From contig JACQXX010000019.1 of the NCBI GenBank assembly GCA_016208495.1, positions 1-64,000 on the forward strand: 64,000 nucleotides of DNA, read 5' to 3'. The DNA is from Acidobacteriota bacterium (GTDB lineage: Bacteria > Acidobacteriota > Blastocatellia > Chloracidobacteriales > Chloracidobacteriaceae). This document shows, piece by piece, positions 11,637 to 30,906 of this stretch (positions are counted from its first letter, which is position 1; each line of letters begins with the position of its first letter). Below the pieces are notes generated by a model, which saw nothing but the letters and a program-made list of their open reading frames with translations, ran no database searches and had not been told where the DNA came from. A program made the position numbers and the translations under genes.

Positions 11637-11683
11637 TCTCAATTCTCAATTCTCAATTCGCAATTCTTCATTCTTCATTCCGA
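11637..11683. repeat. Heptamer array (TCTCAAT/TCTTCAT)
   Basis: Tandem 7-bp units: three TCTCAAT, one TCGCAAT, then two TCTTCAT. The stop codon of the TPR-CHAT gene (minus-strand TGA, 11675-11677) lies inside the array. Confidence 0.8.
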
Positions 11684-14600
11684 CAGCGGTTTCCACTCGC
11701 CGGATTGGATAAATGACGCCCAGTAAAACGGATGTTTCCAGCGGGGATTTTTGAGCATCCACAGTTGCGTGTTTTGGAGCGCATCACTACGGCCCTCGCT
11801 GGCTTTCAGACGGCGGTAATATTCGGTCATCAAAACCTGCGTCCCTTGATCGGAAACTGGCCACAGACTCATCATTTGCGATTCGCTCCCGGCCAGGACG
11901 AGCGCCCGCCGGAGTCCATACACGCCTTCGCCGGTTTTGACATCGCCCACGCCGGTGTCACAGGCCGAGAGTACGACCAGTCTGGTGCCCCACAAATTGA
12001 GGTTGGCGGCTTCCAGGGCGGTCAAGGTGCCGTCATTGTCACTGGTGCTGGGGGCGTTGGCACCGGCAAAAAACAGGTAAGACCGCAACAGCGAATGAGT
12101 GTTCCGTACCTGGTCCATATCCAAACCTGACCCAACCGGCGTCAAATTTCGTTGGGATTCAGGTTCGACGGTCGGTGGGGCCACATCGCTCAAAAATGAA
12201 CCATGCGTGGCAATATGCAGGAGCAACGGACGATCCACCGCTTTGAGTGCCTGTTCAGTCGCGTCAGTTCCTGATTTAAGCTGGGTGTTTTTAAAATACT
12301 GCTGGACCCGTTTGCCTTCGCGGGCAGTTCCTGGGAGACGAACCAGCGGCGGATAGGTTACTCCGAGCAATTGCGGCCCTGGACCGTGGGCATAATCCGG
12401 ATCAACCACCAGTAATGGCGGCGTTTGAGATGGAACTTTGATCTTGAGATGCAACAAATCACGACCACTCGTTAGATAGGTCAATTTAAACTGCTCAACC
12501 ACATACTTTTGGCGATGGTTCATCAGCGCGGCAAAGGGCAATACATTTAACATTCCGTCTGGTGACAGAAAGAACCGTTGCGGCTGACCGGCCAGCTTTA
12601 CGACTGGATTGAAAACCATCTGGTACAGCTTCTGCGAAAGCGGGACAAACCGGGCAATTCCTTTTTGGCTGCGGTCACTCAGTGCGCTGCGAAACTTCAT
12701 CACCAGTTCATCAATGACAGCAGCGTCCCCGAGATCCACCCATTTCGGATCGCCTTTCGGTGTCAGAATATAGGCAATATAGCGTGCAGGCTCGTACTCT
12801 CTGAGTTTGAGATTGGCTGGACGGTAGGTGAGAAACTCGACCAGAACCGCCTCTTTCGGAAGTGCGGCCTGAACAGCCTCGATAGTAATTGGTTCAAACT
12901 GGGCGCGAAATTCAAAACTCAGAAGGCTCACCTGGGCTTCGAGTTGGTCAATCTGGTCTGCAAGTTCTTTGAGCTTCGCCCGATGAACATCATTGCCCTC
13001 TTTTCCAGGCCCTTTTAAGGCCAAATTGGACAATTGCGTTTTGGCGGCAATCAACTGATCCAATAAGTGCTGGTCAGCCGGAGTGGCGCGGGCCCGGAGG
13101 TGCTCTCTACTCAAGGTCATCGCATCCAGAACCCGTCCCTTGCGTCTTAACACTGCCAGCATCGCGGCCCGGAGCGCTGGCAGGTGCTGTGGTAGTGATT
13201 GTACTTGCAGGTCAATCAGTCGCTCAAAATGGACCAGTGTCTTGTTTACATAGAGTAATTTCTGGCGCTCAGAACCACTGAGCAGGTTCCGTCGCCAGTC
13301 AAGTTCGATGATCTCATGGGTTCGAATCTTGTAGCTGAGTACCTGATTGAGATTGTTTGTTGCCTGGGAAACTCTGGAAAGGTCCTCAAGTGTATCCATG
13401 AGTTGTGGATGCGTCGGCCCTAAGCTTTTCTCCTGCATTCCCAGTGCCTGTTGATAATAGTTTTCCGCCTGCTTCAGATCACCTTTGTCTTTATACAAAC
13501 GCCCAAGATGGTAATAACTTTGGGCAATATCAGGATGATCAGCCTCAAAGACCTTTTCTCGAATACTTAATGCACGGCGAAGGAACATCTCAGCTTTGTC
13601 ATAAAGTCCTTGCTGATCATACACCACAGCGAGACTGGCCAGAACCCAGGCCACATCCGGATGGTCAGGGCCTAATCCTTTTTCACGGGCAGCCAGAATA
13701 CGCAGGTACAGCGCTTCAGCCTGATCATATTTTTTCTGATTCAGGGACGCTGATGCCAGATTGTTGAGGGTATTCAGCACAAACGGATGGTCAACACCAT
13801 AGACTTTTTCTTCAATCACCAGAGTCTGGTGAAAGAGTTCCTCAGCCTTGCCATAATCAGTTCGGTCATGGGCAAGCCCACCCAGGTTACCCAAAATGAG
13901 TGCCACACCTGGATGATCTGGTCCAAATGCTTTTTCACGAATGGTGAGCGCCCGCCGGTACAAAACTTCAGCCTGGGTATATTCGCCGAGGTGGGCATAG
14001 GTCAATCCGAGATTGTTGAGTGCCAGCGCTACCGAAGGATGATTTGGCCCCAGTGCTTTTTCATTCAGTTCAAGAACCCGTTTTTGCAAGAGCTCAGCCT
14101 GACGATAGCTGGCCGTTTGCTGATAGACCAGGGCTAGTTCGTTCATCGTGAGTGCGGCTTCACGGTGCTCCTTTCCAAAAAAGCGCTCTTTCATTGCCAA
14201 CGCCCGCAATAAAATTGCTTCCGCTTTGGGGTAATCGCCCCAGGCTCGGTACAAAATACCGAAGTTGTGCAGCGACACCGCTACCAGTGGATGGTCAGCC
14301 CCAAACAGTTTTTCCTTGATGGCCAGTGATTTTTGATACAGCGGTTCTGATTTGGGGTACTCACCGATTTTGTAAGAGACCAGCGCCAGATTCGATAAAC
14401 TTTCAGCCACCTGTTCTGATTCAGGCCCAGTCAGCTTTTCCCGAATGGTCAATGCTCGCTGGTACAAGGCTTCGGCTTTGGGAAACTCATTTTTCCGATA
14501 CGCAAACACCCCCAGGTAATTCACGGCTTCGGCCACCAGGAGATGTTCCGGGCCAAATGCGGCTTCGGCTTGGGTCAATGCCCTGGTAGCCAGGGCGATA

Positions 14601-15136
14601 GCTTCGTCGTACTTCCCGGCTTGATTGGCGGTGCTGACTTTTTGGAGAAGCGCTTCCACCTCGTGGGTTTGCACATCCAGCGTGGAGGCCGGCCCAAGCG
14701 AAAGAATTTTCAGCTCATAGGTTCCAGCCGGCGTATCTTTGGTCGGGGAAACAATCTTGAGTTGATACACACCCGCCGTCGCACTCACCCAGGACAGACG
14801 TTCCGGCCCCTGCGTGCCATTGGGGCTGTCAATCTGGCGCACCACAGCACCATCTGGACCAAGCAGAATAACTTCGACATCAATCCCTTTTTGTTCGACG
14901 ACCAGTTTCAGGTAGTGCCCGACAGGGAGTTCAAGCGGGTACGAGTGGGTTTCGCCACCTCGCATCTGTTTTTCAACTCTGAAACCGGCTTGTAAGGCTT
15001 CAGGAACCGGGTCAGGGAATGACTGGGCCAGCACCACCGGCAGTCTTGCGAAAGAGATCACAAACAAGATCCCAACCAGTCGAAGTATCACTTGATGCTC
15101 ACAAGCGAATGGCAGAGAGGAACGCCGATTCATCAT
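11675..15136 (-). CDS. Secreted TPR-CHAT protein
   Basis: A 1153-residue protein. It has an N-terminal signal segment (IVLRLVGILFVISFARLP region, about 15-40), a PPC-like beta-sandwich at about 55-140 (GHYLKLVVEQKGIDVEVILL), and roughly eleven 42-residue TPR_10/12-type repeats (EALYQRALTIREKxxGPDHPxVA) over about 150-620. A helical linker leads to a C-terminal CHAT caspase-like domain with catalytic His in HIATHGSFL and C1059 in LSACDTGVGD. CHAT domains are cysteine endopeptidases of the caspase/separase fold; TPRs supply partner binding. The ATG at 15136 (second ATG adjacent) is preceded by AGGGGGT; the longer frame to 15313 runs into the Nudix gene. A paralogue is cut by the right window edge at 63711. 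Export of a CHAT protease is plausible from the signal, but its target is unknown. Confidence 0.88.
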   Translation of the reverse strand: MMNRRSSLPFACEHQVILRLVGILFVISFARLPVVLAQSFPDPVPEALQAGFRVEKQMRGGETHSYPLELPVGHYLKLVVEQKGIDVEVILLGPDGAVVRQIDSPNGTQGPERLSWVSATAGVYQLKIVSPTKDTPAGTYELKILSLGPASTLDVQTHEVEALLQKVSTANQAGKYDEAIALATRALTQAEAAFGPEHLLVAEAVNYLGVFAYRKNEFPKAEALYQRALTIREKLTGPESEQVAESLSNLALVSYKIGEYPKSEPLYQKSLAIKEKLFGADHPLVAVSLHNFGILYRAWGDYPKAEAILLRALAMKERFFGKEHREAALTMNELALVYQQTASYRQAELLQKRVLELNEKALGPNHPSVALALNNLGLTYAHLGEYTQAEVLYRRALTIREKAFGPDHPGVALILGNLGGLAHDRTDYGKAEELFHQTLVIEEKVYGVDHPFVLNTLNNLASASLNQKKYDQAEALYLRILAAREKGLGPDHPDVAWVLASLAVVYDQQGLYDKAEMFLRRALSIREKVFEADHPDIAQSYYHLGRLYKDKGDLKQAENYYQQALGMQEKSLGPTHPQLMDTLEDLSRVSQATNNLNQVLSYKIRTHEIIELDWRRNLLSGSERQKLLYVNKTLVHFERLIDLQVQSLPQHLPALRAAMLAVLRRKGRVLDAMTLSREHLRARATPADQHLLDQLIAAKTQLSNLALKGPGKEGNDVHRAKLKELADQIDQLEAQVSLLSFEFRAQFEPITIEAVQAALPKEAVLVEFLTYRPANLKLREYEPARYIAYILTPKGDPKWVDLGDAAVIDELVMKFRSALSDRSQKGIARFVPLSQKLYQMVFNPVVKLAGQPQRFFLSPDGMLNVLPFAALMNHRQKYVVEQFKLTYLTSGRDLLHLKIKVPSQTPPLLVVDPDYAHGPGPQLLGVTYPPLVRLPGTAREGKRVQQYFKNTQLKSGTDATEQALKAVDRPLLLHIATHGSFLSDVAPPTVEPESQRNLTPVGSGLDMDQVRNTHSLLRSYLFFAGANAPSTSDNDGTLTALEAANLNLWGTRLVVLSACDTGVGDVKTGEGVYGLRRALVLAGSESQMMSLWPVSDQGTQVLMTEYYRRLKASEGRSDALQNTQLWMLKNPRWKHPFYWASFIQSGEWKPLSE

Positions 15137-15186
15137 AGACACCCCCTGACCGCAATGGACCCTGCGGTCATTGAAAAACGATCTCT

Positions 15187-15639
15187 TCACGCCGGTTGAA
15201 GAGGGACTTGATTTACCCAAATCCGATAGTGCCGGAGATTTTCGCGAGTGATGAGCGAGAGTTCTGATTCTGAGGGAAACTGATCCAGGGCAAACCAGCC
15301 GATTTCGCTGCATTTACCCGGCTCACAGATGCGTGGCTCGCCGGCAACAATTTGGCAAATGTAGGTCGGCGAAACCCAGTGTTGGCCTTCGTCCGCCAAC
15401 AGATGGTCCACCACATCGAGCAATGGCCCAACGGCGAGTTCGATGCCGAACTCCTCGCGCATTTCGCGCACCAGGGCATCAGTGAGACGTTCACCGAATT
15501 CGACCGAGCCGCCGGGGAATTCCCAGCAACCACGTTCGTTTTTGGCGAGTGGACCGCGCCGCGCCAGAAAAACCTGGCCATCGTGATTGACGATCACGGC
15601 CCCGACGCCGACGCCGATGTAATCAATTCCCTGTTTCAT
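15187..15639 (-). CDS. Nudix hydrolase
   Basis: A 150-residue Nudix (MutT-like) pyrophosphohydrolase. The complete Nudix box is present at about residues 41-63 (GGSVEFGERLTDALV followed by REMREEFGI), matching GX5EX7REUXEEXGU with all metal-binding glutamates. Family members hydrolyse nucleoside diphosphates linked to another moiety, such as oxidised or non-canonical dNTPs; the substrate cannot be told from the box. The ATG at 15639 overlaps the end of the upstream gene by 17 bp, indicating co-transcription and likely translational coupling. Confidence 0.92.
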   Translation of the reverse strand: MKQGIDYIGVGVGAVIVNHDGQVFLARRGPLAKNERGCWEFPGGSVEFGERLTDALVREMREEFGIELAVGPLLDVVDHLLADEGQHWVSPTYICQIVAGEPRICEPGKCSEIGWFALDQFPSESELSLITRENLRHYRIWVNQVPLQPA

Positions 15640-16706: not shown

Positions 16707-16757
16707 TTGCAGGCCGTAAACGACCTGCCTCAATTCAGCCACCGCTACGCGGCGAAA
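16707..16757 (+). repeat. RB repeat copy 1
   Basis: Consists of TTGCAGGCCGTAAACGACCT then GCCTCAATTCAGCCACCGCT then ACGCGGCGAAA. The same sequence is at 17330-17380 and inverted at 26707-26754; the RM element carries the GCTACGCGGCGAA end. Confidence 0.8.
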
Positions 16758-16780
16758 CCCATAACAAAATCAAATTCGAA

Positions 16781-16862
16781 AACCTGGAACCTGGAACCTG
16801 GAACCTGGAACCCGGAACCCGGAACCCGGAACCTTGAACCCTGAACCCTGAACCCTGAACCC
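16781..16862 (+). repeat. C-rich heptamer array (AACCTGG/AACCCGG/AACCCTG)
   Basis: About eleven tandem 7-bp units in three sequence blocks: AACCTGG x4, AACCCGG x3, one AACCTTG, then AACCCTG x3. Blockwise variants show local homogenisation. It ends immediately before TATATTATG, the start of the next gene. Confidence 0.85.
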
Positions 16863-16868
16863 TATATT

Positions 16869-17321
16869 ATGTCTCACCCATCTGTCCCGCTCATCTGGCA
16901 CCCACGAACCATCCCCCTTGCGCCGGTTGGGACTGCTGCCGTTGGTGAAACCGCCTGGCGACTGGCTGAACGACTCCTGGCAGGTGATGATGAGTCACTT
17001 GATTTGCTCGAAGGCGTTGCCGGGCCAGACTGGCTGGTGGTGCTCGGTCCGGAAGCCTCACTGCCCTGGGTGGACGGCGTGATGTATTTGGGGCGTGATC
17101 CGCTCGCCCCGGCGCTCCTGCTGCCGACAGTGCTGTTGCCTTCACTTCCGGTCACACTGGTGGAACAGGCATTTCTGGCACAGTTTCCGGCACTTCAACC
17201 ACCGCTGGCGGTTTTTCCGCAAACCGGAAACGTCATCTCACTTGGCACCGCCCGCCGGGTTGCGCGCACGACACTCCTGAAATGGCTGGAGGGAGTATTT
17301 CCCCAAACCCTGCAACCCTAA
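16869..17321 (+). CDS. bpX5-like protein of a MoxR-associated ternary system
   Basis: A 150-residue protein with no signal peptide. Its central DWLVVLGPEASLPWVDGVMY, LGRDPLAPALLLPT and PLAVFPQTGNVISLGTARR resemble the small bpX5 domain named for MoxR-vWA-beta-propeller ternary systems; this is from memory of the family's look, not a search. In such systems a MoxR AAA+ ATPase, a vWA protein and a propeller protein act together in chaperone-like or conflict-related roles. It is followed by a vWA-like/propeller gene and a bpX6-like gene on the same strand. The ATG at 16869 has no Shine-Dalgarno sequence because a C-rich heptamer array ends 7 bp upstream. The C-terminus (FPQTLQP) runs to the edge of RB2. 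Confidence 0.55.
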   Translation: MSHPSVPLIWHPRTIPLAPVGTAAVGETAWRLAERLLAGDDESLDLLEGVAGPDWLVVLGPEASLPWVDGVMYLGRDPLAPALLLPTVLLPSLPVTLVEQAFLAQFPALQPPLAVFPQTGNVISLGTARRVARTTLLKWLEGVFPQTLQP

Positions 17322-17329
17322 AACCCGAG

Positions 17330-17380
17330 TTGCAGGCCGTAAACGACCTGCCTCAATTCAGCCACCGCTACGCGGCAAAA
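17330..17380 (+). repeat. RB repeat copy 2
   Basis: Nearly identical to RB1 (TTGCAGGCCGTAAACGACCT and CAATTCAGCCACCGCTACGC). It is followed, as at RB1, by CCATAACAAAATCAAATTCG and then a C-rich heptamer array. Confidence 0.8.
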
Positions 17381-17402
17381 CCCATAACAAAATCAAATTC
17401 GA

Positions 17403-17480
17403 AAACCCTGAACCCTGAACCCTGAACCCTGAACCCTGAACCCTGAACCCTGAACCCTGAACCCTGAACCCTGAACCCTG
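17403..17480 (+). repeat. C-rich heptamer array (CCCTGAA)11
   Basis: About eleven near-perfect CCCTGAA units. Every frame acquires a TGA within 21 bp. The array abuts the 5-prime end of the following open frame and appears to have replaced its start region. Confidence 0.9.
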
Positions 17481-17516
17481 ACAACCGCCCTTCAACCCTG
17501 GGCCGAACACCTCGAA

Positions 17517-19253
17517 TTGTTTCCGGCTGAACTCCAATTGAGCCTTGGTCAACTGGTGCGCCGGTTGGATCAACTGATCGGACCCTTGCACGTCAACACC
17601 CATCGGTTGAGCGGTGAACCGGATGGCTTTGACGGCATCGCTCGCCGGGGAAGTTATGAACGGCTGCTGCTATCGGAATGGGTGCTGGCTGATGAGGTGC
17701 CGGACGAATTTATCCGCCGGGCTGCCGTTGGTGAACATTCATTCTTCAACCTTGCCCGCCGCTCTCCCGCCAGCGCCACGGTTTCAGTGGTTTTGTTTGA
17801 TGCCGGCCCCAATCAACTTGGGCAACCACGGCTGGTTCATCTGGCGGCATTGATCGTTTTGGCTCGTCGTGCCGCCCAGGCTCGTAGGCCGTTTCAATGG
17901 GGAATCGTCCAGTCTCCAGAAACACCGCTCCTGACCGGCGTCACTGAAGCCAGTGTCCTGGCGCTGCTCCGGGCACGGAGCCAACGGGAAATGACTGAAC
18001 AGGACCTGGAAACATGGTTTTCAACCCTTGGAATCTCATCCGCGCCTCACGATTTCTGGCTCGTCAGCGGCCCCCGCAGTCGCCAATTTTCGCGACTGGC
18101 GAACGTTTCCAGGCTCGAAGTCAACGATCTGGTCAGCACACCCAACCGGGTTCTGGTCACGATTGCGACTCGCACCCGAACCACGCCGGAAATCGAACTC
18201 GAACTCCCTGATGACCAGGCATCGGTTCGCCTGCTGCGCGACCCATTTCAGGTCTCGCGGCCACTATCCAAACTTGTCCTGGGAAGTCAGTATGTTCCAG
18301 CGTCAAATTTTGTCTTTAGTTTCAATCACACCAAACTCTTTGCCCGCTCAAGACAGGGCGAGTTGATCGCCTATCCAATTCCCAACTCACCGCGCGCTCC
18401 GGTGGGAAAACCACGGCTCTATCACAGCAAATCCAAATTGACGATTGCCGCGGTTGGGCGCATCAAGAAAACAATGTGGGTTATTACCAGCACGGGAAAA
18501 GTAATTTGCTCAGAGTCGCTACGTGCAGGCTGGGACGGCTTTCTGGACACTGATTTTGCGGTGCCGGACTGGGTTGAACCGTTTCAAACACCAGCACTCA
18601 CCGGCCCGCTCCATCAGATTTTTTACCTGACCAGCCCGCACGCTGAACTCCTGACGCTGGACGGGGACGGGCGACTTTTTTCCCTGACGCTCCAGAACGG
18701 TCAGGGACAGGCCGCACTGCACGGGCCGTATGTCAAAGCAATTACTCAACTTGGCTCAAGAATCATTTATATTCGCCAGCTTCAGAAAAAAGGCTGGGGC
18801 GTGGTATCGGTTGAAACCGATCAAAAGTTCACGCACATTGTCGAAGGCGAAGGGGAACAGGCGTTTTTTGGATTTGGCTATGGGGATGGAGATTCGAAAG
18901 TCGGGCTTTTTGCGGTTCACCGGGGCGGCCAGGAATGGGTTGTCATGAACCGCACGGGAGAGCACATTTACCGCCAGCCAACCGGCACGACAGTGATCGG
19001 GGTCATCGGTCCCATTGCCCGGTTGAGCCGTGAAACCCCGGCGCTGGTGGTGCTTGATGACGACCGGCGAACGATTCACCTGCTCGGCAGAAACTGGAGC
19101 CACAGCCTGCCGCGCTTTGCCCATCCAATTGATCAGGTCACTCTTTCGACCACGCACCCAATGATGGCCTATTCAACCGTGGCCGGCGAAGTAGGACTCT
19201 ATTCATTTTTTAATGAGGCAGTGTTTACGTTGCTACGCGGGATTGAAAAATAG
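17517..19253 (+). CDS. vWA-like/beta-propeller protein of bpX-type ternary system; start uncertain
   Basis: A 578-residue protein counted from TTG at 17517. The N-terminal region (about 1-170: LVRRLDQLIGPLHVNTHRLS, GIARRGSYERLLLSEWVLAD, VSVVLFDAGPNQLGQPRLVH) looks like the degenerate vWA domain of MoxR-associated ternary systems, with no clear DxSxS metal site. From about 240 onwards come beta-propeller-like strands. The open frame begins at 17475, right after the last TGA of the heptamer array. The bases between encode a plausible continuation (TTALQPWAEHLELFPAEL) but contain no ATG or GTG; only CTG 17478 and TTG 17517 could initiate and neither has a ribosome site. The array has probably destroyed the native start. 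Family call is inference; the frame itself is solid. Confidence 0.6.
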   Translation: MFPAELQLSLGQLVRRLDQLIGPLHVNTHRLSGEPDGFDGIARRGSYERLLLSEWVLADEVPDEFIRRAAVGEHSFFNLARRSPASATVSVVLFDAGPNQLGQPRLVHLAALIVLARRAAQARRPFQWGIVQSPETPLLTGVTEASVLALLRARSQREMTEQDLETWFSTLGISSAPHDFWLVSGPRSRQFSRLANVSRLEVNDLVSTPNRVLVTIATRTRTTPEIELELPDDQASVRLLRDPFQVSRPLSKLVLGSQYVPASNFVFSFNHTKLFARSRQGELIAYPIPNSPRAPVGKPRLYHSKSKLTIAAVGRIKKTMWVITSTGKVICSESLRAGWDGFLDTDFAVPDWVEPFQTPALTGPLHQIFYLTSPHAELLTLDGDGRLFSLTLQNGQGQAALHGPYVKAITQLGSRIIYIRQLQKKGWGVVSVETDQKFTHIVEGEGEQAFFGFGYGDGDSKVGLFAVHRGGQEWVVMNRTGEHIYRQPTGTTVIGVIGPIARLSRETPALVVLDDDRRTIHLLGRNWSHSLPRFAHPIDQVTLSTTHPMMAYSTVAGEVGLYSFFNEAVFTLLRGIEK

Positions 19254-19296
19254 CAAGGTGAGTCAGTAGTCAATACTGCGAATGAAGGGTTGAAGC

Positions 19297-19505
19297 CGTT
19301 TTGGTTCTTAACCTACGAAGTAGGTGACGGCTCGTAGCCCAGGGCGAGTCTTCGAGCCCTGGGAATCTGGTCATTCTCCACCTTTTTCCCACCCGACCCG
19401 CCGCCGTAGGCGGCGGGTCGGGTGGGGCAATCTGGAACTGACCCGCATCCGGTGGTGGCGCGTCCAAAGCGACGCTGACCACCGGCTAACCTGGCTCCAT
19501 CCCTT
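19297..19505 (+). repeat. RC element copy 2
   Basis: The left part (TTTTGGTTCTTAACCTACGA then AGTAGGTGACGGCTCGTAGC) is identical to RC1 for about 55 bp. It is followed by the CCCAGGGC/GCCCTGGG stem, the 19388-19426 hairpin, and a CCGGTGGTGGCGCGTCCAAA tail similar to RC1. Confidence 0.75.
19388..19426. repeat. Perfect 18-bp stem, 3-nt loop hairpin (RC2)
   Basis: CCCACCCGACCCGCCGCC pairs perfectly with its inverted copy across loop GTA (19406-19408). It lies in the same place within RC as the hairpins at 11342 and 36357 but has a different stem sequence. Confidence 0.88.
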
Positions 19506-19568
19506 CAGGATGAGGACCAACAACCACTTCAACCCTTAGGCATTATTAGCTGCTGACTAAAAACTGGT

Positions 19569-22451
19569 ATGACGAACTCCATTCATCCCCGAAACCTGAT
19601 TCACCGTGGCGTGGTCGAGGCGGCAGGGATCCTGATTCCAATCAATTTGTGTGGTATCACCGAAGCCCAGCGGCGGGTCATTGGCCATTGGGAAGCCGGG
19701 GCACGTGTGTTTCGCGTGGCGGGTGGCTATCTGGTGCAATTTTCAGCTTCTCATCTGATTGATTGCCGTCTGGCAGATGGGTTGCCAGTGGTTGCGCTGG
19801 GAAAAACACTGAGCACCGTTCCACTCACCAGCCAGGAACTCAAAGCCCTCCAACCACAACCCAACTCGCTCGTCACGGCCCAGGGTGGGCAGATTCATAT
19901 CGAATCACTGGCCGAACAAAAATTAGAGACCCTTTCAGCCTGGATTGACCTGAGCAATTTTCAAGTGGTTGAAGTGACATCACTTGGAAGTCCGCCACCG
20001 GCTATCGTTGAAACGGCTCCGGCACTGGTCTTTGACCCTCGACAGCAACTGGATGGCGTCCCGCTGGCCTCGCCACAAATGGCTGAAGTCATTGCGGCAC
20101 TGACGCGACCAGTCAGGGTGCAATCGGCACCGCCTTCCACGTCACAGCGTTCGTCAGAAAACCGGCAGCCAGGGTTTTTCGCACGACTGATATCACAACT
20201 CAAGCTGATGACAGCTTTTCTGCGCAGCCAGGAAGAAACGCAAACCTCAACCACGACCCCGTCACCTCCAGCGAGGAAACCATCCGTCGAACCAGTCCAG
20301 TCGCCTCCTCGACCCTGGTGGCGGCAACTGGTTGATACCATCGGGCAACTGTTTGGAAGCCGGCAACCGGAACCGCCTGATGATCAGCTCCGGGTGTTGC
20401 CACCGTCGCCACAATCAATGTTTGAAAATATGTCCAACTGGGCGCGCCGACTGACCGCCCGCTTTCTGCTCTTTAGTCGGCTGGCCCACCTGATTGGCCA
20501 GCAACAGGCCCGATATCTGAGCAAAATGATGGATATGTTTGAACGTGGAGACTTGCACGAAGCCCTCCGCCACGCGATTCCGCTCAGCAGCCTGCCCGGC
20601 GAAGGAAAATCCGTTCCAGCACTCAGCGTCCCATTCCCGCGCAGCCGGTTGAGTATTTCCCCGTATCAACAGCGGGCAGGTTCTTCGATTGGCATGGGCG
20701 AAGAACTCTTTGCCCAGCTTCGCCAGTTGTATCGGGCGGCGTTTGATCGGCTGAACGCTCAGGGAAAAATCGAGGAAGCCGCCTTTGTCCTGGCCGAACT
20801 CCTGCAGGAAAACGAAGAAGCCGTTGCCTTTCTGGAACGCCACGGCAGACTCAAACTGGCAGCGGAAATGGCCGAAGCCCGGCAACTCGCTGCCGGACTC
20901 GTGGTGCGCCAGTGGTTTCTGGCTGGAAATCGGCGGCGAGCGGTCACACTTGCCCGGCGAACCGGTGCCTTTGCCGATGCCATTGTTCGACTTGAAAAAA
21001 CTGATCCACAGCAGGCAAACACGTTGCGACTGCTCTGGGCCACGACCCAGGCCGAAGCGGGTGAATATCCGGCAGCGGTCAACACGATCTGGCCAGTTTC
21101 CGAAGCCCGCCATATTGCGGCTGACTGGGTCGAACGGGCCATTGCCGGAGGTGGCGTGGTGGCAGGTCAAATGCTGGCCTATAAACTGACGCTCTTCCCA
21201 ACCGATCATGAAGCAATGAGCGGGCCTGTCCTCGACCTGCTGGCTGATGAAGACCCTGAAAAAGCCCCAATGCGGGCGGCATTTCGGCGAACACTGGTGG
21301 CAGATGCCCCCAAAGGCCCGGTGCCACAAATGCTCGCCCGAGCCGCAGTTCGGGCAACGATTCGCGATATGAGTCAGGGACACGTTCAGGCCACCACCAA
21401 TGAACTCACCAATCTGCTGACCTTTGCCGGCGATGCGGCGCTACGCACGGATGTGCCAACCGTGACCAGTCCGCATCTCCCAAAATTGCAAACCATCACC
21501 AAACCTCGGATTTTTACGGCGGACGCCACCGATGCCGGCCTGATGCCGGTGTATGATGCGGCCTACCTGCCGGATGGAAAGTGCCTGGTGGCGCTTGGGG
21601 AATCAGGCATTCGGTTGCTTTCAAGTCAAGGGAAAACACTGACCCACTTTGACAAACCAGCCACGGCACTGGTGCTCTCAGATCAGGGCAATCGGGCGAT
21701 TGGATTGATTCGACGCGGCGAAGTCTGGAAACTGACCAAACTTGATCTCACCACCCGGAGTGCTTCAGACTGGTGCGAAGCCGAACTTTCTGATTTTGCC
21801 CGCGATTTTGATGGACAAGCCTGGGTTGTCAATTCACGGGATGACATTCTGGTGATTGACACGCTTGGGAAACGCTTTGAGGCATTGTGGCGCATTCCCG
21901 AAATTGGCCGAACGTTGACGATCTCTCGTTCGACCAGCCAGTGTTCGTTATTTGTCGTCAATGGCCAGCACAAACAGGTCGAAATCTGGACATATGCGTT
22001 GCCCCAGTTTCGGCTGCAAAGCCGCGAAGCCATTACCTTTACCCCGGATTCGGTGCTTGAACGCACGGTGGCGTTGAATCCAGGTGGATTTTCCCTGAAT
22101 GCCGCCCTCCAAACCGACACGCATCTTGTCCAGGTAACCCGTTGCTGGCAAAAATCATTCTTGAGCAAACAGGAACTGACCACTGCCACGGCACTCTCGC
22201 CAAACCAGCCGGTTCTGACCACAAGCTGGATGGTCATTCCGGTGCGAAATGAAAGCGAAGTTCGGGTCTATGTGCTCGACTGGACCCACACCCAGACGCG
22301 ACTTGAGCTTCTACTGAATGCGACGAGAGAGGTTTCGCTCCGGTTGACAAATGATGATACACTGACGATTTGCGACCATCGGGGTCGCATCTTTGTGTTT
22401 GAACTGACCTATGGCAACCAGCTCCGCAACCTGCGGATGGGAACAACTTAG
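19569..22451 (+). CDS. bpX6-like multidomain protein of a MoxR-associated ternary system
   Basis: A 960-residue cytoplasmic protein. Residues 1-100 (HRGVVEAAGILIPINLCGIT, GHWEAGARVFRVAGGYLVQF) resemble the bpX6 domain by eye. Residues 170-290 are low-complexity Ser/Thr/Pro with two tryptophan-rich helices. About 300-600 is alpha-helical, TPR-like (KIEEAAFVLAELLQENEEAV, EARQLAAGLVVRQWFLAGNR). About 640-960 is a beta-propeller (YLPDGKCLVALGESGIRLLS). In known ternary systems such proteins accompany a vWA protein and MoxR ATPase; no ATPase is in view. The ATG at 19569 lacks a ribosome site and is fused to a repeat end. The TAG stop (22449-22451) is formed by the first bases of a heptamer array. 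The frame is certain; family name is moderate inference. Confidence 0.62.
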   Translation: MTNSIHPRNLIHRGVVEAAGILIPINLCGITEAQRRVIGHWEAGARVFRVAGGYLVQFSASHLIDCRLADGLPVVALGKTLSTVPLTSQELKALQPQPNSLVTAQGGQIHIESLAEQKLETLSAWIDLSNFQVVEVTSLGSPPPAIVETAPALVFDPRQQLDGVPLASPQMAEVIAALTRPVRVQSAPPSTSQRSSENRQPGFFARLISQLKLMTAFLRSQEETQTSTTTPSPPARKPSVEPVQSPPRPWWRQLVDTIGQLFGSRQPEPPDDQLRVLPPSPQSMFENMSNWARRLTARFLLFSRLAHLIGQQQARYLSKMMDMFERGDLHEALRHAIPLSSLPGEGKSVPALSVPFPRSRLSISPYQQRAGSSIGMGEELFAQLRQLYRAAFDRLNAQGKIEEAAFVLAELLQENEEAVAFLERHGRLKLAAEMAEARQLAAGLVVRQWFLAGNRRRAVTLARRTGAFADAIVRLEKTDPQQANTLRLLWATTQAEAGEYPAAVNTIWPVSEARHIAADWVERAIAGGGVVAGQMLAYKLTLFPTDHEAMSGPVLDLLADEDPEKAPMRAAFRRTLVADAPKGPVPQMLARAAVRATIRDMSQGHVQATTNELTNLLTFAGDAALRTDVPTVTSPHLPKLQTITKPRIFTADATDAGLMPVYDAAYLPDGKCLVALGESGIRLLSSQGKTLTHFDKPATALVLSDQGNRAIGLIRRGEVWKLTKLDLTTRSASDWCEAELSDFARDFDGQAWVVNSRDDILVIDTLGKRFEALWRIPEIGRTLTISRSTSQCSLFVVNGQHKQVEIWTYALPQFRLQSREAITFTPDSVLERTVALNPGGFSLNAALQTDTHLVQVTRCWQKSFLSKQELTTATALSPNQPVLTTSWMVIPVRNESEVRVYVLDWTHTQTRLELLLNATREVSLRLTNDDTLTICDHRGRIFVFELTYGNQLRNLRMGTT

Positions 22452-22560
22452 GGTTCAGGGTTCAGGGTTCAGGGTTCAGGGTTCAGGGTTCAGGGTTCAG
22501 GGTTCAGGGTTCAGGGTTCAGGGTTCAGGGTTCAGGGTTCAGGGTTCAGGGTTCAGGGTT
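22450..22560 (+). repeat. G-rich heptamer array (AGGGTTC)16
   Basis: Sixteen near-perfect tandem units (111 bp), equivalent to (TTCAGGG)n, starting at the stop codon of the preceding gene and ending in TTTTCGAATTG. Four or more GGG runs with 4-nt loops satisfy the G-quadruplex pattern on the coding strand. Confidence 0.93.
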
Positions 22561-22781: not shown

Positions 22782-22786
22782 ACCTG

Positions 22787-22840
22787 AACCCTGAACCCTC
22801 AACCCCGAACCCTGAACCCTGAACCCCGAACCCTGAATTA
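22787..22840 (+). repeat. C-rich heptamer array upstream of PP2C gene
   Basis: Seven to eight CCCTGAA/CCCCGAA/CCCTCAA units ending 24 bp before the ATG at 22864. With the array at 22450 they bracket the intergenic region as inverted repeats. Confidence 0.85.
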
Positions 22841-26612: not shown

Positions 26613-26880
26613 TTAGGGTTCAGGGTTCAGGGTTCTTCGAAGGGATGAAGGATGAGGGATGAGGGATGAACGAAACCACCTTTTCACCCTGTCATTGTAT
26701 CCTGGTTTTCGCCGCGTAGCGGTGGCTGAATTGAGGCAGGTCGTTTACGGCCTGTAAATAAAGATCAAAATTCGAAAACCCTGAACCCTGAACCCTGAAC
26801 CCTGAACCCTGAACCCTGAACCCTGAACCCTGAACCCTCTATGTCTTTTAAACCCTGAACCCCGAACCCCGAACCCTCAA
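26613..26880 (+). repeat. Compound intergenic repeat: G-rich array, RB3, C-rich arrays
   Basis: AGGGTTC x3 (26613-26635), a GGATGAG/GGATGAA heptamer array (26643-26668), inverted RB3 (26707-26754), AAATTCGAAAAC, then about nine CCCTGAA units (26777-26838) and a second set with CCCCGAA variants (26851-26880) ending 7 bp before the AsnB start. It fills the whole gap between two plus-strand genes. Confidence 0.85.
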
Positions 26881-30635: not shown

Positions 30636-30906
30636 GGAGTAGGGGTCAGGGGTCGGGGGTCAGGGGGTCAGGGGTCAGGGGTTTCGAATCAATGATTGGT
30701 TTTGTTTCCGTGGGCTGCGCACCACGGCTATTACACGACGCCCGTGCTGGGCTAAAATCCTTATCCTGGCGCATATGGGGTGACAGGTAACAAAATGACA
30801 GGATAAAAAGGCTGTTTCTTTCATCCCTCATCCCTCATCCCTCATCCCTTCGAAGAACCCGGAACCCGGAACCCGGAACCCGGAACCCGGAACCCGGAAC
30901 CCGAAA
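30636..30906. repeat. Compound intergenic repeat between convergent genes
   Basis: In order: GGGGTCAG-type octamers (30645-30681), TTTCGAA, half an RA element (RA4, 30705-30777, right end TCCTTATCCTGGCGCATATG), a TCATCCC heptamer array (30820-30850), CTTCGAAG, and seven CCCGGAA units (30855-30905) ending at the stop of the minus-strand glycosyltransferase. Both genes converge here and each has G-rich repeats on its own coding strand after its stop. Confidence 0.82.

What the first reader, a model, noticed from the sequence alone, without database searches (positions are those of the whole stretch)
16869..22451. bpX-like ternary set without a MoxR ATPase
Three consecutive plus-strand proteins look like bpX5, vWA-like/propeller and bpX6 proteins of MoxR-vWA-beta-propeller systems. 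The expected AAA+ MoxR gene is not adjacent and not in the window; both sides are unrelated genes. The set may work with a MoxR encoded elsewhere or be a reduced variant.
Basis: partly seen in the sequence, partly recalled or inferred. Interest (0 to 1): 0.62.

Follow-up and report, generated by a model that had tools for sequence, protein, structure and literature searches.

The report
Split MoxR–vWA–propeller gene set
A known kind of four-gene bacterial system, thought to respond to invaders, is complete in this genome, but its motor gene sits far from the other three, whereas in every relative that could be checked the four lie side by side.

Summary
The three genes are real. Gene 1 is bpX5 (Pfam E 8e-26). 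Gene 3 carries bpX6 at its N-terminus (E 1e-30), followed by a helical repeat region and a β-propeller. Gene 2 matches no Pfam model, but it is the divergent vWA-like/β-propeller partner found between bpX5 and bpX6 in relatives. In 16 of 18 other loci a bpMoxR lies directly upstream of the set; in the other two the contig starts too late to tell. So this is a complete MoxR–vWA–β-propeller ternary system in two pieces, not a reduced one. All four proteins keep the conserved residues, so MoxR most likely acts in trans. On C111, MoxR sits 152 bp from nine iteron-like repeats and a TrfA-like initiator gene; relatives of that initiator lie on the second contig of three two-contig genomes. The C19 junctions contain heptamer arrays, one reaching the likely CTG start of the vWA gene. 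Misassembly is not supported but not excluded. The system is known; the split arrangement is a modest variant.

The parts
16869..17321 (+). bpX5 protein, 150 aa
   Evidence: PF19921 E 7.9e-26; 47-51% identical to the bpX5 of three relatives
17478..19253 (+). vWA-like + beta-propeller protein, 591 aa; start most likely CTG 17478 (TTG 17517 is the first common start codon)
   Evidence: No Pfam hit; 40-44% identical to the gene between bpX5 and bpX6 in three relatives; model pLDDT 83 with beta/alpha domain about 100-255 and propeller about 270-591
19569..22451 (+). bpX6 protein, 960 aa: bpX6 domain at 19590-20093, Pro-rich linker, helical repeat region, C-terminal beta-propeller
   Evidence: PF19922 E 1.3e-30, 1.1e-31; model secondary structure and fold matches
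16781..16863 (.). heptamer array (AACCTGG / AACCCGG / GAACCCT) ending just before the bpX5 ATG
   Evidence: Tandem Repeats Finder
17404..17481 (.). heptamer array (AACCCTG)x11 that reaches the likely CTG start of the vWA gene
   Evidence: Tandem Repeats Finder; sequence
22450..22560 (.). heptamer array (AGGGTTC)x16 directly behind the bpX6 stop
   Evidence: Tandem Repeats Finder

Best explanation
This is a MoxR-vWA-beta-propeller ternary system whose four-gene operon (MoxR, bpX5, vWA/propeller, bpX6/repeats/propeller) has been separated into two loci. Three genes are in the window on C19; the AAA+ MoxR is a single gene on C111 (C111:34103-35275). Inferred mechanism: the MoxR ATPase still works in trans with the vWA-like protein, as MoxR-vWA pairs do, using ATP to remodel or load a complex. 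The two propellers scaffold vWA on the bpX6 protein, whose N-terminal domain is the candidate effector (Kaur et al. 2020 propose the propeller contact and the effector role). Shown here: presence, homology, domain order, the split, and retention of conserved residues. Inferred: interaction in trans, ATP-driven remodelling, a role in conflict. The break probably followed general shuffling and spacer expansion in a repeat-rich genome.
For: One PF20030 match stands out at 284.8 bits; the next best in the genome has 56.6. It is 65-67% identical to the MoxR directly upstream of bpX5-vWA-bpX6 in G051 and G312. Linkage survey: MoxR is immediately upstream in 16 of 18 other loci and undeterminable in 2. 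Co-occurrence in 14 genomes: all 4 with bpX6 have a strong bpMoxR; 9 of 10 without bpX6 have none. Of the columns invariant in the other rows, this genome's proteins break 3 of 45 (bpX5), 0 of 24 (vWA), 0 of 18 (bpX6) and 4 of 106 (MoxR); other rows break 6-11, 0-2, 0-3 and 1-8. P-loop GPPGTAKS fits the GXXXTAKS form given for these systems. C111 and C19 share composition (TETRA r 0.87) and heptamer units.
Against: No expression or interaction data. The MoxR gene has lower GC3 (0.486 against 0.575-0.596) and does not group with its Blastocatellia relatives with support in the MoxR tree (22%), so a separate origin is not excluded. Flanking genes are not syntenic enough to show which locus is ancestral. 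The assembly is a draft of 177 contigs, and no reads were seen.
Confidence: 0.8

Rival explanations
1. Assembly or binning artefact: MoxR really lies before bpX5 and the contigs were misjoined, or C111 belongs to another organism.
For: Draft of 177 contigs; repeat arrays lie near both junctions.
Against: The longest exact word shared by the 439 bp upstream of bpX5 and the 674 bp downstream of MoxR is 10 bp, in either orientation, so no shared repeat explains a misjoin. Both junctions lie well inside contigs (about 34 kb into a 72 kb contig and 17 kb into a 180 kb contig). Reported contamination is 0. C111 shares composition and heptamer units with C19.
Confidence: 0.1
2. The C19 set lost its own MoxR; the C111 MoxR arrived independently, perhaps with the neighbouring plasmid-type replication region, and serves in its place or serves something else.
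For: The MoxR stop is 152 bp from iteron-like repeats and a TrfA-like initiator gene; lower GC3; unresolved place in the MoxR tree.
Against: It is the only strong bpMoxR in the genome; no bpX5, vWA-like or bpX6 gene was found on the 69.9 kb of C111 that were scanned; and its best matches are operonic MoxRs of the same class.
Confidence: 0.12
3. A decaying remnant: the set is no longer used and its parts are scattering.
For: Expanded spacers (156 and 315 bp) full of repeats, and loss of a standard start codon at the conserved N-terminus of the vWA gene.
Against: All four frames are intact, and conserved residues are kept as well as in linked systems. Two relatives (G051, G297) also have spacers of about 100-200 bp and keep the operon.
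Confidence: 0.1

Closest known systems
MoxR-vWA-beta-propeller ternary systems (Kaur et al. 2020, PMC7159879, section 22 read in full; Pfam PF20030, PF19921, PF19922)
   Same: bpMoxR with GXXXTAKS-type P-loop, bpX5, vWA-like protein with C-terminal propeller, bpX6 protein with helical repeats and propeller
   Different: MoxR is unlinked here; spacers are long and repeat-filled. [quoted passage not shown] the loci found here are also in records labelled Acidobacteria, Armatimonadota and Actinomycetota groups
Linked MoxR-bpX5-vWA-bpX6 operons of Blastocatellia bacterium SSF51 (JAIBAN010000023.1), UBA7656 (DLHY01000058.1) and the WN_Acidobacteria bin29 (JAAFHI010000128.1)
   Same: Same four genes, same order and strand; 37-67% protein identity
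   Different: MoxR adjacent in all three (cut by the contig end in the third)

Membership tests
MoxR-vWA-beta-propeller ternary system | bpMoxR AAA+ ATPase present | tested here: met
   PF20030 E 9.6e-85 at C111:34151-34720, elsewhere in the genome
MoxR-vWA-beta-propeller ternary system | P-loop of the form GXXXTAKS in MoxR (often, per the paper) | tested here: met
   GPPGTAKS; form quoted from section 22
MoxR-vWA-beta-propeller ternary system | bpX5 and bpX6 domains | tested here: met
   PF19921 and PF19922 far over cut-off
[quoted passage not shown]
   Model residues 270-591, VIA-align Z up to 15.8, rmsd 4.3 over 274 residues; Foldseek matches to propellers
MoxR-vWA-beta-propeller ternary system | vWA component: the (divergent) vWA domain itself | tested here: inconclusive
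   No Pfam vWA hit in 17 of 17 members, no vWA among PDB sequence hits. Order of elements b-a-b-a-a-b-a-b at residues 103-217 and an Asp (D108) invariant in 17 of 17 suit a divergent vWA; the fold search was filled by the propeller
MoxR-vWA-beta-propeller ternary system | Third component with TPR-like and propeller regions | tested here: met
   Model: helices 378-628, strands 647-956; propeller matches; bpX6 in 13 of 15 members, TPR_GEMI5 in 4 of 15, best E 0.0011
MoxR-vWA-beta-propeller ternary system | Membrane-spanning segment in the third component | not tested
   No membrane-span predictor was run
MoxR-vWA-beta-propeller ternary system | All genes in one neighbourhood (usual organisation; taken here as customary, not defining) | tested here: not met
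   MoxR on C111, the rest on C19; met in 16 of 18 other loci, 2 undeterminable
MoxR-vWA-beta-propeller ternary system | Role in biological conflict | not testable with these tools
   Needs experiments

The most novel reading that the evidence does not exclude
The split is selected: the MoxR ATPase has been placed beside the origin of a second, plasmid-type replicon, so that the system is complete only while both replicons are kept, or its ATPase dose follows replicon copy number. The system would then watch over replicon retention.
Probability: 0.05. Interest if true: 0.65.

Novelty: new variant of a known kind. Interest (0 to 1): 0.3.

Why it matters
Scans that look only at neighbours would call this set incomplete, although the genome carries all four genes. 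It is also a natural case for testing whether the MoxR-vWA pair needs co-expression from one operon, and it adds records labelled Acidobacteria, Armatimonadota and Actinomycetota groups to the range named in the 2020 description. Beyond that it is ordinary.

Tried and rejected
Ordinary MoxRs as partner: the other PF20030 hits score 56.6 bits or less. The next best, on C16, sits in a neighbourhood whose ORFs over 200 aa show no bpX-like protein by eye; rejected as partner.

A defence label: no PADLOC hit for any of the three, and NCBIfam gave only two weak hits below cut-off. Absence from those libraries says little.

bpX1 and bpX2 in the genome: no match at E <= 0.01, but the controls did not ring either, so absence is not shown. 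bpX0, bpX3 and bpX4 were not searched in the genome.

Synteny to find the ancestral site: five genes flanking the operon in G051 were sought in G000. One (coiled-coil gene, 54%) is on C111 at 23593, 10.5 kb from MoxR; none is on C19. Tex is on C110, the guanylyltransferase on C161. A weak hint for C111 only. Genes flanking both G000 loci are scattered in G051, G312, G297 and G086.

G025 has a bpMoxR-like gene (46%, partial) without bpX5 or bpX6 nearby, and only a weak match to the vWA N-terminal profile (2e-7): probably another subtype.

Trees for vWA, bpX6 and MoxR are too weakly supported to test common history.

PDB sequence searches: vWA profile hits are almost all propeller proteins; bpX6 profile hits are Tako8/Ika8, diisopropyl-fluorophosphatase and YfgL. 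The vWA N-terminal profile found nothing meaningful; VIA-align listed no vWA fold because the propeller filled the list.

Literature: 'MoxR, vWA, bpX' gave 1 paper (RavA-ViaA; listing only). led to the 2020 paper (outline, passages, section 22 read). 'bpMoxR, bpX6, bpX5' gave listings that look mostly unrelated; PMC9677677 (Pseudomonas syringae genomes) holds bpX5 and bpX6, listing only. None of these listings mentions a split system; no other search was made for that.
Full report
What is there. The window holds three plus-strand genes: bpX5 (16869-17321), a 591-residue protein (17478-19253) and a 960-residue protein with bpX6 at its N-terminus (19569-22451). Both Pfam matches are far over cut-off, and each is the only match in the genome. 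The middle protein has no Pfam match, alone or in any of 17 homologues, apart from one chance-level hit in one member. Its alignment shows a conserved N-terminal half with 23 invariant positions in 17 sequences, including the Asp of a D-x-GP motif. Its model (pLDDT 83) has helices, a β/α domain at about residues 100-255 and a propeller from about 270 to 591, matched by solved propellers. That the β/α domain is a divergent vWA rests on the order of its elements, the invariant Asp and the description of such domains in PMC7159879 (passages and section 22); it was not shown by a database match. The bpX6 protein's model shows the N-terminal domain, a poorly predicted linker, helical repeats and a propeller.

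The missing MoxR is elsewhere. A search of the window's own genome (8.38 Mb, 177 contigs, 99.16% complete, 0 contamination) with PF20030 gave 43 matches at E <= 10. One stands out: C111:34151-34720, 284.8 bits; the next best has 56.6 bits, and none lies in the window. The gene (C111:34103-35275, L011:12104-13276, 390 aa) carries GPPGTAKS. Upstream is an M28 peptidase gene on the other strand. Downstream, 152 bp after the stop, begin repeats of TTGGTGTACCCGTGACCA: nine copies with at most one mismatch, all within 35428-35928 of C111 and none elsewhere in the genome; the reversed control gave none. Behind them is a gene whose protein has no Pfam match. It is 23-24% identical to proteins annotated as the plasmid replication initiator TrfA in two Rubrobacter plasmids (E 1e-4 and 2e-3; a third weak hit in Priestia is unannotated). 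Relatives of this initiator are on the second contig of three two-contig 3.7 Mb genomes of the family (G086, G114, G157), and eight contigs of G000 including C111 carry a match. That C111 is a second replicon is therefore only a possibility. It also carries genes that look like succinate dehydrogenase subunits and an ammonium transporter (read by eye), so it is not a small plasmid.

In relatives the four genes are together. G051, G312 and G297 carry MoxR-bpX5-vWA-bpX6 on one strand. They are the same contigs as L043, L038 and L037 of the named collection (equal contig lengths). A scan of named genome contigs gave 16 loci. Profiles built from the four Blastocatellia sets, or three for MoxR, found MoxR directly upstream in 14 of 16 (in L037 cut by the contig end). 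In L039 and L040 the contig starts inside bpX5 or just before the vWA gene, so they cannot be judged. Two further loci from the plasmid collection (Embleya, Methylobacterium) also have MoxR upstream; in the second no bpX5 was detected. Together: 16 of 18 linked, 2 of 18 undeterminable, none unlinked. In several loci the MoxR stop and the start of the bpX5 match are within a few bases or overlap (L041, L044, L045, L049, L051, L052), so the split also removes what is often a tight gene junction. The system is rare in the phylum: bpX6 in 2 of 297 sampled genomes and a bpX6-protein match in 4 of 39 relatives; both counts include G000 itself.

Is the split set still constrained? Leave-one-out counts of conserved columns show no excess of changes in any of the four proteins. 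In 14 genomes, bpX6 and a strong bpMoxR (E <= 3e-22) occur together in 4 of 4 (G000 among them); among the 10 without bpX6, 9 lack a strong bpMoxR and G025 has a more distant one. This supports a working pair in trans. Against a simple common history: MoxR GC3 is 0.486 while the other three have 0.575-0.596, and the MoxR tree leaves G000 unplaced.

Artefact check. The regions next to the two break points share no exact word longer than 10 bp. The break points lie inside contigs. C111 and C19 have similar composition (GC 0.513 and 0.527; tetranucleotide r 0.87, against 0.78 for another piece of C19 and 0.46-0.62 for relatives; r also depends on the length compared, and 2 kb of C111 was not held) and share heptamer units absent or nearly so in the stretches of four other genomes. 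Misassembly or a foreign contig is thus unlikely, not excluded.

Heptamer arrays. About 36 arrays of period 7, 14 or 21 per 100 kb occur in 170 kb of G000 held here (this count includes the iterons, period 21), 32 per 100 kb in 19 kb of G051, 52 in 7.7 kb of G297, 6 in 16 kb of G312, 0 in 20 kb of G025, and 7 in 138 kb of seven unrelated loci, where nearly all have period 21. They lie in front of bpX5, between bpX5 and the vWA gene, and behind bpX6. The array before the vWA gene ends in ...CCCTGACAACC; every reading frame of the array meets TGA within 21 bp, and the only start-like codon in frame before TTG 17517 is the CTG of the last unit. The homologues' N-termini align from about that CTG. 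Similar intergenic heptamer repeats close to start codons are described in Beggiatoaceae, and the same repeat in Cyanobacteria and Bacteroidetes (PMC4679880, abstract).

Mechanism and verdict. The most likely reading is a complete MoxR-vWA-β-propeller system, split by rearrangement, with the ATPase acting in trans on the vWA-like protein and the two propeller proteins forming the scaffold. Presence, homology, order in relatives and conservation are shown; interaction, ATP-driven action and a role in conflict are inferred from the family. The system is known; the split is a variant of arrangement with modest interest.

Noticed in passing
window 16781-16863, 17404-17481, 22450-22560, 22783-22837, 26777-26838, 30855-30903: Many heptamer tandem arrays (AACCCTG, AACCCGG and others), dense in this genome and in two members of its family; one array supplies the likely CTG start codon of the vWA gene.
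   Followed up: partly
L011:13429-15757 (C111:35428-37756): Nine iteron-like repeats and a TrfA-like initiator gene; initiator matches on eight contigs of this genome, and on the second contig of three two-contig relatives.
   Followed up: partly
window 16709-16782 and 17332-17405: A dispersed repeat (GCAGGCCGTAAACGACCTGCC...) stands beside the heptamer arrays on both sides of bpX5 (read).
   Followed up: no
window 11675-15313: Large TPR-CHAT protein (caspase-like peptidase domain) three genes before bpX5 on the other strand; a TPR-rich gene with a similar C-terminal part (read by eye) also lies near the operon in G051.
   Followed up: no
L011:5254-6561: Caspase-domain (Peptidase_C14) protein on the MoxR contig, about 6 kb from MoxR.
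   Followed up: no
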